A stretch of DNA of 64,000 nt from Leifsonia shinshuensis (GTDB lineage Bacteria; Actinomycetota; Actinomycetes; Actinomycetales; Microbacteriaceae). The stretch's first letter is position 1. Each line of letters begins with the position of its first letter. Position numbers and translations under genes: made by a program. Below, piece by piece: positions 6,474 through 59,471 of this stretch. The stretch is from NCBI RefSeq assembly GCF_014217625.1, contig NZ_CP043641.1, positions 62,001 to 126,000 of the forward strand, written 5' to 3'. A model generated the notes under the pieces. It had not been told where the DNA came from and searched no databases. It was given only the letters and a program-made list of their open reading frames with translations.

Positions 6474-6513
6474 CGGCGTCCTCCCCTCGATACCGGCGAC
6501 CTCCCCTCGATAC
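6474..6513. repeat. 20-bp tandem duplication in the fba-glpX promoter region
   Basis: Two adjacent 20-bp units (6474-6493 and 6494-6513) differ at one base and each ends in CCTCGATAC. The second unit runs into TACACT, a plausible -10 box for glpX. The duplication may double a promoter or a regulator site. Confidence 0.7.
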
Positions 6514-6566
6514 ACTGGCTTCGCCGTCGTCCGGCGGCTCGATCGATTCGTCCGGGAGGACCCATC

Positions 6567-7568
6567 ATGCCCAGCACCGACACCGCGTCACTCTTCCTTC
6601 ACCCCGACCGGAACCTGGCCATGGAGCTGGTGCGTGCGACCGAGGCGGCGGCGATCCGGGCCACCCCGTGGATCGGCCGCGGCGACAAGAACGCGGCGGA
6701 CGGCGCGGCCGTCGACGCGATGCGCAAGTTCCTCGGCACGGTGAACTTCGACGGTCTGATCGTGATCGGCGAGGGCGAGAAGGACAACGCCCCGATGCTG
6801 TTCAACGGCGAGCACGTCGGCAACGGCCGCGGACCGGCCTGCGACATCGCGGTCGACCCGATCGACGGCACCTCGCTGACCGCCGCCGGCCGCCAGAACG
6901 CGCTGTCGGTCATCGCGGTGTCCGACCGCGGAACGATGCTGGACGCCTCCAGCGTCTTCTACATGGACAAGATCGTCACCGGTCCGGAGGGCCGCGGGGT
7001 CGTCGACCTGTCGCAGCCCATCGGCGACAACATCCGCGAGCTGGCGAAGGCCAAGGGCAAGCCGGTGGGCGAGATCCGGGTGGCCGTGCTGGACCGGCCG
7101 CGTCACGAGGGCCTCATCGAGGAGATCCGCGCGGCGGGTGCCGGGACGCGCCTCATGCTCGACGGCGACGTGGCCGGCGGCATCAACGCGGCACGCTACG
7201 AGTCGCGCATCGACCTGTGCGTCGGCATCGGCGGCAGCCCGGAGGGCATCACGACCGCCTGCGCGATCAAGGCGATCGGCGGCTTCATGCAGGGCCGGCT
7301 GGCGCCGAAGGACGACGCGGAGCGCGCCCAGGGGATCGCGGCGGGCCTCGACATGGACAAGGTCTACGGCGCCGACGACCTGGTGAAGGGCGACAACACC
7401 TTCTTCGTCGCCACCGGTGTCACCGACGGCGGCCTCGTGGAGGGCGTGCGCCGCAAGGGCCCGATCATCCGCACCGAGTCGATCGTGCTGCGCTCGAAGT
7501 CGGGCACCATCCGCCGCGTGGTGGCAGACCACCTCGCGGAGAAGTGGCTGTCGGCCGACGAGCTGTAA
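6567..7568 (+). CDS. glpX: Class II fructose-1,6-bisphosphatase
   Basis: GlpX hydrolyses fructose 1,6-bisphosphate to fructose 6-phosphate and is the gluconeogenic FBPase of most actinobacteria. The 333-aa product carries the metal/phosphate motifs GEGEKDNAPM and DPIDGTSLT expected of the Li-sensitive phosphatase fold. ATG 6567 follows GGGAGGA, which decides the start against a longer in-frame reading from 6249. It faces rmuC across the palindrome array, which is the only candidate for its 3' end. Confidence 0.96.
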   Translation: MPSTDTASLFLHPDRNLAMELVRATEAAAIRATPWIGRGDKNAADGAAVDAMRKFLGTVNFDGLIVIGEGEKDNAPMLFNGEHVGNGRGPACDIAVDPIDGTSLTAAGRQNALSVIAVSDRGTMLDASSVFYMDKIVTGPEGRGVVDLSQPIGDNIRELAKAKGKPVGEIRVAVLDRPRHEGLIEEIRAAGAGTRLMLDGDVAGGINAARYESRIDLCVGIGGSPEGITTACAIKAIGGFMQGRLAPKDDAERAQGIAAGLDMDKVYGADDLVKGDNTFFVATGVTDGGLVEGVRRKGPIIRTESIVLRSKSGTIRRVVADHLAEKWLSADEL

Positions 7569-7574
7569 CGCGCA

Positions 7575-7851
7575 CGCGACATTCGTGCCGAATGTCGCGT
7601 TCGCGCGCTGCTTTCGCCACATTCGTGCCGAATGTCCGCTGCCGCTTCGCACATTCGTGCCGAATGTCCGCGCTGCCGCTTCGCACATTCGTGACGAATG
7701 TGGCGTTTGCGCGTTGCTATTGCGACATTCGTGCCGAATGTTGGCCTGGGGCCGTTGCGACTTTCGCGCCGAATGTCGGCGCGGGGCCGTTGCGACATTC
7801 GTGCCGAATGTCGTGATTGCGTCGCGTTATGGCGACATTCGTGACGAATGT
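7575..7851. repeat. Array of eight 17-bp palindromes (family A)
   Basis: ACATTCG-TGM-CGAATGT occurs eight times, with cores at 7579-7595, 7619-7635, 7651-7667, 7685-7701, 7725-7741, 7760-7776 (degenerate), 7795-7811 and 7835-7851. Start-to-start spacing is 32-40 bp. Copy 1 extends to 11-bp arms (7575-7585 and 7589-7599). The three-base loop is TGC in five copies, TGA in two and CGC in the degenerate one, so all copies point the same way. The array fills the gap between the convergent glpX and rmuC genes. Each unit could fold as an RNA hairpin, but none has a T-tract. Confidence 0.95.
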
Positions 7852-7867
7852 GGAGGTGGGCGGCGCG

Positions 7868-9304
7868 TCAGGCGGCGCCGGAGTCCTCGTCGCGGTCAGC
7901 GGCGCGGGCCCGCTCCTCGAGCGCCAGCTTGTCGATGCCGTGCATGTCGCGGGCGTGTTCGGCTGCGGGCGCTTCGACGCGGAGCCGCGCCTCGGCCTGC
8001 GCGTCCAGCTCCTCTACGAGCTCGAACGCCGTGAGTTCCCTCGGCGCCTCCTCGATGCCCTCCAGGACGCCGATCACCTTGGACTCGTCGAGCGCGCCGA
8101 GCTTGCGCGCAGCCGGGAAGACCTGACGCTCGAAGGAGCCGACGAAGCCGTTGTAGTCCTTCACCGTGCGCTCGATCGACCGACCGAGCTTCTCGATGTG
8201 GCCCGCGGTCGTGCCCAGCCGGCTGTAGAGGGTGCGGCTGAGGTCGAAGAGCTGCTTGGCCTCCTGGGTCAGGACGTCCTGCTGCCAGCTGAACGCGACG
8301 GTCTTCAGCACCGACCACAGGGTCACCGGGGAGGCCAGGGCCACCCGTTTGCCGAACGCGAACTCCATGATCGACGGGTCGGCCTCCATCGCGGACGACA
8401 CGAGCGACTCGCTCGGGATGAACGCGATGACCAGCTCGGGGGAGGACTCCAGCCCCGTCCAGTACGCCTTGCCGCCCAGCGTCGTGATGTGGTCGCGCAC
8501 GGCCTTCACGTGCTGCTTCAGCAGGGCCTCGCGCTGCGCGCCTTCGGTGCCGGTGGCGGTCGCGGGGATCTGGCTGGCCTCGAGGTAGGCGTTGAACGGC
8601 ACCTTGGCGTCGAGTGCGATGCTCTTGCCGCCGGGGAGCCGGATGATCATGTCGGGACGCCCGGCGCCGGACTCCGAGTGGATGCTGGACTGCACGTCGA
8701 AGTCCACCCGCTCGATCAGGCCGGCGGCCTCCACGACGCTGCGGAGCTGGGTCTCGCCCCAGACGCCGCGCGTGCTGTTGGAGCGCAGCGCCGACGCCAG
8801 CGACTCGGCGGTGCTGCGCAGCCGCTCTTCCGACTCGGCCGCCGACCGGAGCTGCTGCGCGAGCTGGCCGTGCTGCTGGTTGCGCTGGGTCTCGAGCTCG
8901 ATCACCTTGCGCTGCATGTCGCTCAGGCTCTCGCGCACGGGCGCCAGCGCCTGGAGCACCTTGCTCTCGGCACGTTCGCGCTCGGTCTGCGCGAGCGCCT
9001 CCGCGCGGTGCCGCTCCTCGACCCGCTGCAGCTGCTCGCGGGCCCCGAGCAGCTGCTCCTGCAGCGAGTCGACCCGGGTGTCGGCGGCGGCGAGCTCCGT
9101 ACGGAGCGCCGCCTGCGCGGCCGCCTCCTGCGCGCGCACCTCGAGCAGCTCCCGCTCGTGCCGGGCGGCGACGATCGCCGGGTCCTCCACCGCGGGGGCC
9201 GCGGCCTCGCGGCTCCGGAGCAGTCGCGCGACGGCGAATCCCGCGCCGGCCGCTCCGATGAGGAGACCGAGCAGGAGGCCGAGGAGGAGAGCGGGAGTGT
9301 CCAT
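7868..9304 (-). CDS. rmuC: RmuC-family DNA recombination protein
   Basis: RmuC proteins limit recombination at inverted repeats and have a nuclease-like core. The 478-aa product starts with a membrane anchor (about 5-27), then a long coiled coil (about 45-175). The RmuC domain spans about 180-440, with RGVWGETQLR, LDAKVPFNAY and GKAYWTGL segments. Its 3' end abuts the palindrome array, which is notable given that E. coli rmuC mutants show more inversion at inverted repeats. No link is shown by the sequence. Confidence 0.93.
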   Translation of the reverse strand: MDTPALLLGLLLGLLIGAAGAGFAVARLLRSREAAAPAVEDPAIVAARHERELLEVRAQEAAAQAALRTELAAADTRVDSLQEQLLGAREQLQRVEERHRAEALAQTERERAESKVLQALAPVRESLSDMQRKVIELETQRNQQHGQLAQQLRSAAESEERLRSTAESLASALRSNSTRGVWGETQLRSVVEAAGLIERVDFDVQSSIHSESGAGRPDMIIRLPGGKSIALDAKVPFNAYLEASQIPATATGTEGAQREALLKQHVKAVRDHITTLGGKAYWTGLESSPELVIAFIPSESLVSSAMEADPSIMEFAFGKRVALASPVTLWSVLKTVAFSWQQDVLTQEAKQLFDLSRTLYSRLGTTAGHIEKLGRSIERTVKDYNGFVGSFERQVFPAARKLGALDESKVIGVLEGIEEAPRELTAFELVEELDAQAEARLRVEAPAAEHARDMHGIDKLALEERARAADRDEDSGAA

Positions 9305-41706: not shown

Positions 41707-41849
41707 GCGATTCCGCACGAATGTCGCGAAACGGCGCGCCATTCGCCACATTCGACACGAATGCGGGCTCGGGATGCGCCGCCGCATGGCCGCGATTCGT
41801 CACGAATGTCGCGAAACCGAGCGGCGTTCGCTACATTCGGCACGAATGT
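41707..41849. repeat. Four family-A palindromes between pucR and the cupin gene
   Basis: Copies lie at about 41707-41727 (shortened left arm), 41748-41764 (loop ACA), 41792-41812 (loop TCA) and 41833-41849 (loop GCA). The loops are KCA-like, so these copies run opposite to the array at 7.6 kb. They fill the gap between two convergent genes and end 10 bp before the cupin stop. Confidence 0.9.
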
Positions 41850-58266: not shown

Positions 58267-58323
58267 GCATTCGTGACGAATCTCGCGTTTCGCCGAGCCA
58301 AACGAGACATTCGGCACGAATGT
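58267..58323. repeat. Two family-A palindromes at the nifS 3' end
   Basis: A degenerate copy (58267-58283, loop TGA) and a perfect ACATTCG-GCA-CGAATGT (58307-58323, loop GCA) have opposite loop orientation. The second ends on the last base of the nifS stop codon (minus strand TGA at 58323-58325). They sit in a gap between two minus-strand genes, downstream of nifS. Confidence 0.85.
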
Positions 58324-59471
58324 CAGGAGGCGAGGCCACGCACCTCGCGGACGGCGTCCGCGACGGCGGGCGCTACGGCGGCGAGGGCGGCCTCCGTGAC
58401 GTCCGGTCCCCAGGAGAACCGCACCGCCGTGCGGGCCACGTCCTCGTCGTAGCCGAGCGCGAGCAGCACGTGCGAGGCGTCCTCGTTGCCCGCCGCGCAC
58501 GCCGACCCGCTGGAGGACACGATCCCGCGCCGCTCCAGCTCCAGCAGAACCGTCTCGCCGTTGGTGCCGGGGAAGACGAAGGAGGCCGTACCCGGCAGCC
58601 GCGACGACGCGTGCCCGGTCAGCTCCGCCCCGGGCGTCTGCGCCAGCACCGCGGCCGTGAAGGCGTCGCGCGCGGCCGTCGCGCGGGCGGAGTTGGCCTC
58701 CCGGTCGCGCATCGCCAGGCGCGCCGCCGTCGCCAGGGCGACCGCGCCCGCGACGTTCTCGGTCCCCGAACGGCGTCCGCGCTCCTGGCCGCCGCCGTGC
58801 AGCACCGGCTCCAAGGGAAGCCGGCCGCGCACGTATAGCGCCCCGATCCCCTTGGGGGCGCCGATCTTGTGCCCGGAGACGCTGAGCGCGTCGACGCCGA
58901 GCGCGCGGACGTCGAGCGGGAGCCAGCCCGCGGCCTGCACCGCATCGGTATGGAAGGGCACACCTCGATCGTGCGCCAGCGCCGCGAGCTCCGCGACCGG
59001 CTGGATGGTGCCCACCTCGTTGTTGGCGAGCATCACGCTCGCGAGCGTCGTGTCCGGCCGCAGCGCCGCCGCGAAGTCGTCGGGGGAGACCAGGCCGTCG
59101 CGCCCGACCGGGACGTACGTCGCCTCGAAGCCGTGCACGCGCACCAGGTAGTCGACGGAGGCCAGCACCGCCTCGTGCTCGATCGGCGTCGTCACGAGGT
59201 GCCGGCCCCGGGGCGCGCCCAGCGCGATCCCCTTCACGGCGAGGTTGTCGGCCTCCGTGCCTCCCGAGGTGAAGACGACCTCCGACGCCCGGCAGCCGAG
59301 CCACTCCGCGACCGTCGCCCGTGCCGCGGCCAGGGCGCGCGCCGCCGACTCGCCGACCGCGTGGTGGCTGGACGGGTTGCCGAAGTCGCCCGTGAGGTAC
59401 GGCCACATGGCCTCCAGCACCTCGCGGCGCACCGCGGAGGTCGCGGCGGCGTCGAGGTAGAGGGAGGTCAT
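58323..59471 (-). CDS. nifS: Cysteine desulfurase (NifS/IscS family)
   Basis: A 382-aa PLP enzyme that takes sulfur from cysteine. The Schiff-base lysine is K202 (SVSGHKIGAPKG) and the persulfide cysteine C325 (SSSGSACAAG). TSGGTEADN and the N-terminal YLDAAAT complete the site. ATG 59471 follows GGAG. As the last gene of the nadABC operon it most likely loads the [4Fe-4S] cluster of NadA. The closing palindrome overlaps its stop. Confidence 0.93.
   Translation of the reverse strand: MTSLYLDAAATSAVRREVLEAMWPYLTGDFGNPSSHHAVGESAARALAAARATVAEWLGCRASEVVFTSGGTEADNLAVKGIALGAPRGRHLVTTPIEHEAVLASVDYLVRVHGFEATYVPVGRDGLVSPDDFAAALRPDTTLASVMLANNEVGTIQPVAELAALAHDRGVPFHTDAVQAAGWLPLDVRALGVDALSVSGHKIGAPKGIGALYVRGRLPLEPVLHGGGQERGRRSGTENVAGAVALATAARLAMRDREANSARATAARDAFTAAVLAQTPGAELTGHASSRLPGTASFVFPGTNGETVLLELERRGIVSSSGSACAAGNEDASHVLLALGYDEDVARTAVRFSWGPDVTEAALAAVAPAVADAVREVRGLAS

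What the first reader, a model, noticed from the sequence alone, without database searches (positions are those of the whole stretch)
7575..7851. Array of eight oriented 17-bp palindromes between glpX and rmuC
ACATTCG-TGM-CGAATGT is repeated eight times at 32-40 bp spacing. The arms stay the same while the bases between units vary, apart from one degenerate unit (7760-7776). The loop triplet is asymmetric, and all eight copies have the same orientation. Together with four copies at 41.7 kb and two at 58.3 kb, this is a dispersed extragenic palindrome family in one 64-kb window. Established precedents are REP/BIME elements and their RAYT transposases; no such transposase is in the window. Possible roles are transcript-end hairpins, protein-binding clusters (about 3-4 helical turns per unit) or a mobile non-autonomous element.
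Basis: seen in the sequence. Interest (0 to 1): 0.75.

Follow-up and report, generated by a model that had tools for sequence, protein, structure and literature searches.

The report
Paired palindrome element behind Leifsonia genes
Behind the stop codons of many genes in Leifsonia bacteria sits a 57-base paired-palindrome DNA element whose recognition bases hardly change between related species while the bases around them drift, which suggests that something reads them, although the enzyme known to spread similar elements elsewhere was not found in the genomes searched.

Summary
In detail: eight copies (seven exact) lie at 7579-7851 between convergent glpX and rmuC. They belong to a family found across Leifsonia: 75 exact copies in this genome, 1-271 in 22 of 28 Leifsonia genomes, one in the other-genus genomes of a 299-genome family sample. 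The real unit is a 57-bp dyad: two ATTCG-N3-CGAAT palindromes 40 bp apart around a patterned 23-bp centre. The array is three such units plus two singles. Of 39 clusters examined in this genome, 38 have an edge within 20 nt of a stop codon; 25 are convergent, none divergent. At matched sites in a relative the half-sites are 96% identical, against 78% for the centre and 66% for spacers, so selection holds the arms in place. The centre keeps its A/T-G/C pattern with little matched change across the dyad, and distances between elements repeat every ~10 bp. Both favour a protein on double-stranded DNA over a hairpin, though the hairpin is not excluded. No RAYT/Y1 transposase was found in 28 genomes and no GTAG/CGTC tag. 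Verdict: a REP/BIME-like variant, not found in the papers searched; most likely a protein-bound barrier or topological site at gene 3' ends. Protein and mechanism are unidentified.

The parts
7579..7635 (.). 57-bp element 1 (palindromes 7579-7595 and 7619-7635, 23-bp linker)
7651..7667 (.). single palindrome, exact
7685..7741 (.). 57-bp element 2 (palindromes 7685-7701 and 7725-7741)
7760..7776 (.). single palindrome, one mismatch (ACTTTCG...)
7795..7851 (.). 57-bp element 3 (palindromes 7795-7811 and 7835-7851)
41708..41764 (.). 57-bp element with degenerate arms, between convergent genes (PucR family, Cupin_3)
41793..41849 (.). 57-bp element, second of the pair at 41.7 kb
58267..58323 (.). 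57-bp element abutting the stop codon of the minus-strand gene 58323-59471; the orthologous gap in genome G020 is exactly 57 bp shorter
6567..7568 (+). glpX (FBPase_glpX), ends 10 nt before the array
7868..9304 (-). rmuC, stop codon 16 nt after the array

Best explanation
The array is made of a Leifsonia REP/BIME-like element. The unit is a 57-bp dyad: ATTCG-N3-CGAATGTCG, three A/T bases, about nine G/C bases, three A/T bases, CGACATTCG-N3-CGAAT. Shown: it is dispersed at gene 3' ends, stands in tandem arrays (75-bp steps), is present at some sites and absent at the same sites of close relatives, and its half-sites are kept by purifying selection while linkers and spacers drift. Inferred: an unidentified protein binds the double-stranded element as phased dimers (six A/T patches about 10 bp apart inside the unit, helically phased distances between units) and makes a bidirectional barrier behind stop codons. 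That barrier would block read-through and antisense transcription between convergent genes, or deal with the positive supercoils that collect there, as gyrase is reported to do at E. coli BIMEs.
For: Genome-wide and genus-wide copy number with a clean control. Placement: of 39 clusters in this genome 25 convergent, 13 tandem, 0 divergent, 1 called intragenic but 8 nt from the next gene's stop; 38 have an edge within 20 nt of a stop. Convergent 25/38 against 15/66 window gaps, p=2e-5; divergent 0/38 against 15/66, p=8e-4 (the window gaps include three of the clusters). Selection in place: in 12 of 24 G000-G006 sites comparable in length, core 443 of 460 identical, linker 414 of 529, spacer 66%, codon positions of the upstream genes 96.7/97.7/77.0%. 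A second set of 13 pairs in other Leifsonia: core 260 of 260, linker 79.6% (pairs chosen by core match, some sharing a locus). dsDNA rather than hairpin: linker columns 22-24 and 34-36 are A/T in 86-100% of 66 doublets (background 32%), with the A-or-T choice complementary in 105 of 175 cases; 16 of 27 substitutions in those columns are A<->T; double changes are not enriched (8 seen, 9.1 expected, 3 keep pairing); chimeric halves fold as well as natural ones (mean -34.1 against -33.0 kcal/mol, 33 elements). Phasing: 71 inter-element spacings, period 10.1 bp, R=0.56, p<=0.0005; without this genome 38 spacings, 9.75 bp, R=0.44, p 0.003-0.004.
Against: No binding protein was found, and 6 of 28 Leifsonia genomes have only 0-4 cores, so the function is dispensable. 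Pairing is not absent: complementary linker pairs exceed one half (154 of 240 G/C pairs, p=1e-5; 105 of 175 A/T pairs, p=0.01), two column pairs exceed nearly all shuffles in mutual information, and one-sided changes that break a pair number 44 against 58 expected. RNA of the elements folds well (mean z -4.1). Of 11 G020 gaps without the element put to folding, 7 hold another hairpin (z -2.1 to -12.0), 2 none and 2 were too short, which fits a hairpin terminator role. The hugging of stop codons is looser in other species: edge within 20 nt in 8 of 18 hand-picked clusters and 5 of 7 in syntenic regions, with one divergent call in each set. The phasing test was devised after seeing the spacings, arrays share ancestry, the locus sets overlap in part, and it is marginal when each distinct spacing counts once (29 values, p=0.05). 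The A/T rule is relaxed in L. sp. CL147.
Confidence: 0.45

Rival explanations
1. RNA hairpin at transcript 3' ends: the transcribed element folds into a long hairpin that ends or protects the mRNA (or stalls ribosomes, as REPs within 15 nt of a stop codon are reported to do in E. coli).
For: Placement right behind stop codons; strong folding (mean z -4.1) and other hairpins at 7 of 11 element-less gaps of G020; excess of complementary linker pairs and fewer pair-breaking single changes than expected, 44 against 58; REPs within 15 nt of a stop are reported to act on translation (PMC12306157, passages read).
Against: No U-tract terminator in 7400-8000; no enrichment of double compensatory changes; chimeric halves fold as well; invariant letters in the arms where pairing alone would allow change.
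Confidence: 0.28
2. Selfish REPIN-like miniature mobile element, moved in trans by an unknown transposase and tolerated at gene ends.
For: Doublet organisation like REPINs (PMC3116915, abstract and section 10 part 1 of 2); patchy core number 0-459; one clean 57-bp difference without target duplication at 58.3 kb; 12 of 24 sites lack it in G020 and 4 of 24 in G006.
Against: Y1/RAYT matches in 0 of 28 genomes; IS110 transposases do not track copy number (14 of 28 genomes, none in the 271-copy genome); arms conserved at orthologous sites, which mobility alone does not explain. Other transposase families were not tested.
Confidence: 0.15
3. Gyrase (BIME-2-like) sites relieving positive supercoils between convergent genes: a special case of the best explanation, with a known protein.
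For: Convergent placement, ~10-bp phased A/T patches, helical phasing between units; E. coli BIME-2 is reported to bind gyrase (PMC2817692 and PMC1525189, passages read).
Against: Gyrase is universal (recalled) but 6 of 28 Leifsonia genomes have only 0-4 cores; 13 of 39 clusters are tandem; no cleavage data.
Confidence: 0.1

Closest known systems
REP/BIME of enterobacteria (GTAG REPs)
   Same: Short extragenic palindromes in pairs and clusters, mostly downstream of genes and frequently between convergent genes (PMC3733652, PMC1525189, passages read).
   Different: No GTAG tag, no RAYT, a phylum not among those named for GTAG REPs in the passages of PMC3733652, and a linker that keeps composition more than pairing.
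REPINs of Pseudomonas
   Same: The doublet is the unit; arms conserved, linker variable but fixed in length (PMC3116915, section 10 part 1 of 2).
   Different: REPIN spacers are said to show common compensatory changes; here double changes are not enriched. No RAYT. Unit 57 bp.
CGTC REPs
   Same: No dedicated transposase reported (PMC3733652, passages).
   Different: No CGTC tag in the flank profile; stems 8-9 bp with 4-5 nt loops there, 7-8 bp with 1-3 nt here.
REPs listed by RepRanger
   Same: PMC12306157 (passages) lists three Actinomycetota species with predicted palindromes, so such repeats in this phylum are not new as such.
   Different: Leifsonia is not named there (0 occurrences); a 57-bp dyad of this kind was not seen in the passages read.
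Dispersed palindromic protein sites such as matS or Noc sites (recalled, no call)
   Same: Many short conserved palindromes bound in place.
   Different: As recalled, those are not tied to stop codons and do not form 57-bp dyads; no protein is known here.

Membership tests
GTAG REP / REPIN-RAYT | Terminal GTAG (or degenerate) tag | tested here: not met
   Flank base frequencies of 66 G000, 20 L. aquatica and 102 CL147 doublets show no fixed tetranucleotide
GTAG REP / REPIN-RAYT | RAYT (Y1 transposase, PF01797) in the genome | tested here: not met
   0 of 28 genus genomes; control rings in 5 of 14
REP/BIME-like (broad sense) | Many extragenic palindromes, paired and clustered, at 3' ends | tested here: met
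REPIN | Doublet forms a hairpin with compensatory changes in the spacer | tested here: inconclusive
   Folds as a long hairpin in 57 of 66 and complementary pairs are in excess, but double changes are not enriched and halves are interchangeable in folding
CGTC REP | CGTC tag at one end | tested here: not met
   definition from PMC3733652 (passages)
Intrinsic terminator | GC-rich hairpin followed by a U-run | tested here: not met
   0 found in 7400-8000; tested at this array only
MITE of a DDE transposase | Terminal inverted repeats with target-site duplication | tested here: inconclusive
   One clean occupied/empty pair differs by exactly 57 bp with no duplication; one pair only
BIME-2 gyrase site | Bound and cleaved by gyrase | not testable with these tools
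   no binding data
Rfam RNA family | Match at gathering score | tested here: not met
   Three matches in 6500-9000, at 34.1 of 200, 22.2 of 60 and 21.2 of 60 bits

The most novel reading that the evidence does not exclude
Leifsonia has a dedicated nucleoprotein system for gene 3' ends: an unknown protein recognises ATTCG-N3-CGAAT half-sites, wraps the 57-bp dyad along one face of the helix, and builds phased bidirectional transcription barriers between convergent genes. These barriers would stand in for U-tract terminators, and array length would set their strength.
Probability: 0.3. Interest if true: 0.8.

Novelty: new variant of a known kind. Interest (0 to 1): 0.55.

Why it matters
REP-like families are usually explained by RAYT transposases and by hairpins. 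Here is a REP-like family without a RAYT in any of the 28 Leifsonia genomes searched. Its selection can be measured site by site between species, and it falls on the half-site letters more than on hairpin pairing. That makes the old question of whether REP-like repeats are host function or genomic parasites directly testable, and gives a natural series (0 to 459 core copies in related species; clusters of 1 to 13 cores in this genome) for it.

Tried and rejected
RAYT/Y1 link: rejected, 0 of 28 genomes. IS110 as mobiliser: 14 of 28 genomes, none in the genome with 271 copies, and 3 and 5 matches in two genomes (G013, G027) without cores. Plasmid or phage origin: no match of 7560-7870 in either collection. 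Rfam: nothing near gathering score; the MIR839 match (34.1 of 200 bits, E 0.0002) is taken as a repeat artefact. Canonical terminators: none at the array. Linker covariation over the whole linker: z 2.2 in G000, 1.3 in L. aquatica, 0.5 in H1aii, 2.9 in L. shinshuensis, -1.5 in TF02-11, 1.1 in 71-9, -4.4 in CL147 and 1.1 in the unlisted loci; not consistent, so not used as proof of a hairpin. Elements in other genera: the doublet pattern with 2 mismatches hits 7 genomes of 7 other genera among 179 genomes, 1-3 matches each, 10 places in all; nine of the ten were fetched and look like unrelated long hairpins, some at gene ends. G000-G020 conservation: only 3 comparable loci, one of which holds no element in G020, so it was not used. 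Target-site duplication: none seen by eye at single doublets. The order of G000, G020 and G006 in the tree rests on two genes and sits badly with third-position identity (0.770 to G006, 0.749 to G020), so gains and losses were not polarised, except at 58.3 kb, where the gaps shown for G020, G001, G017, G013 and G025 have no core (in 6 of 14 relatives no synteny was found there). Literature: the searches list no report of this family; only listings were seen except for the papers named here. Papers seen in part: PMC3733652, PMC12306157, PMC2817692, PMC1525189, PMC8049555 (passages), PMC3116915 (abstract and section 10 part 1 of 2). The statement that REPs within 15 nt of a stop stall ribosomes is taken from PMC12306157, not from the original paper.

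Full report
Observation. Seven are exact and one has a mismatch; shuffled sequence gives about one match at three mismatches, the window gives 15. The array fills the 299-bp gap between the stop codons of glpX and rmuC.

Scale. In the window's genome (4.61 Mb) there are 75 exact sites and 115 within one mismatch; the reversed control pattern gives none. Among 28 genomes of the genus 22 have exact sites, from 1 to 271. The shorter core ATTCGNNNCGAAT is in 26 of 28, with only 0-4 copies in six of the 28. In a 299-genome sample of the family 7 genomes matched: six of this genus, and one of another genus with a single site. Contig lengths identify G001 as L. aquatica DSM 20146, G007 as L. shinshuensis DP-L11 and G022 as Leifsonia sp. 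CL147.

Anatomy. The unit is a doublet: two 17-bp palindromes 40 bp apart, 57 bp in all. In 66 doublets of this genome (picked by cores within one mismatch, so the cores are conserved by choice) the two bases next to the linker are GT and AC in 58 and 55 of 66, and the outer two are looser. The 23-bp linker keeps A/T at columns 22-24 and 34-36 (86-100%, background 32%) and mostly G/C between. Which of A or T stands there is complementary across the dyad in 105 of 175 cases, and G/C pairs in 154 of 240: an excess over one half, but a modest one. In G009 the central piece is itself a full palindrome, giving three palindromes at 20-bp pitch in the same 57 bp; L317 of G018 shows the same. In both forms six A/T patches lie about 10 bp apart. 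CL147 has 40-bp tandem arrays and a looser linker.

Context. I examined 39 clusters in the window and 35 fetched stretches, which hold 69 of the 75 exact sites; the listing was cut before the rest, and clusters without an exact 17-mer, such as the array in L319, were not sampled. 25 clusters are between convergent genes, 13 between tandem genes, 0 divergent, and 1 was called intragenic but lies 8 nt from the next gene's stop. 38 of 39 have an edge within 20 nt of a stop codon; the exception (L025) has, by eye, a terminator-like hairpin between. Genes were called with a home-made codon-usage method, so single distances may be off. Other species are looser: of 7 clusters in syntenic regions 6 are convergent and 1 divergent, 5 within 20 nt of a stop; of 18 hand-picked clusters 12 are convergent, 4 tandem, 1 divergent and 1 at the edge of its stretch, 8 within 20 nt.

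Turnover. At glpX-rmuC the gap holds one doublet in G006, G012, G001, G002, G016 and G007 (some degenerate), 20-bp-pitch variants in G015 and G024, an unrelated hairpin in G020 (z -12.0) and, by eye, in G011, and short or plain gaps elsewhere. At 24 sites of this genome G006 has the element at 20 and G020 at 12. At 58.3 kb the occupied gap here and the empty one in G020 differ by exactly 57 bp, without duplication. Arrays grow in tandem: 13 cores at alternating 40 and 35 bp between convergent genes at G000:C1:41.5-44 kb.

Selection. At 12 of the 24 sites the arrays are comparable in length between this genome and G006. There the core letters are identical at 443 of 460 positions (96.3%), linkers at 414 of 529 (78%), loops 70%, spacers 66%; codon positions in the upstream genes are 96.7, 97.7 and 77.0%. 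The linkers are closer to their own ortholog (75.6%) than to other loci (53.7%, 23 element pairs), so the sites are the same ones and not refreshed copies. A second set of 13 pairs gives core 260 of 260 and linker 79.6%, but those pairs were picked by core match and share some loci. The positions that matter are therefore the half-sites.

Protein or hairpin. Paired linker columns do not change together more than expected (8 double changes, 9.1 expected, 3 still paired), while one-sided changes that break a pair are fewer than expected (44 against 58), which leaves room for some pairing constraint. Left and right halves of different elements fold as well as natural ones (33 elements). Distances between neighbouring elements cluster near 25, 35, 46, 55 and 66 bp, a period of 10.1 bp (71 spacings, p<=0.0005; 0.003-0.004 without this genome; 0.05 when each distinct value counts once). 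On balance these point to double-stranded DNA read by a protein. Against this, the RNA does fold strongly, and 7 of 11 element-less gaps of G020 tested hold another hairpin.

Comparison. By what it looks like it belongs with REP/BIME elements; by the tests it is not a GTAG REP, not a RAYT-driven REPIN and not a CGTC REP. Predicted REPs have been listed for other Actinomycetota (PMC12306157, passages), but Leifsonia is not named there. I call it a new variant of a known kind.

Noticed in passing
L278 (G020 site of L021) and L205; variant in L264: G020 carries another long palindrome with GGGGACGC(A/G)ACACGCCG in more than one intergenic gap, possibly a second dispersed hairpin family; its other element-less gaps (L261, L267) hold hairpins of still other sequence.
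   Followed up: partly
L319 (G000:C1:41500-44000): A 13-core array of the element in near-identical 75-bp tandem steps between convergent genes, with no exact 17-mer in it.
   Followed up: partly
L019:3051-3107: A predicted gene (weak score) appears to read through an element in frame (57 bp = 19 codons) to a stop behind it.
   Followed up: no
L307-L315 (other Microbacteriaceae genera): Long hairpins with a similar CGAAT...ATTCG core, some near gene ends, in other genera.
   Followed up: partly
G000:C1:3750773 and 3759063; also G001:C6, G006, G013: Two IS110-type transposase genes about 8.29 kb apart recur in four Leifsonia genomes, like one shared mobile segment.
   Followed up: no
L025, L028, L040, L042: By eye, a terminator-like hairpin lies on one side of the element; in three of these four (L028, L040, L042) the element hugs the gene without it.
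   Followed up: no
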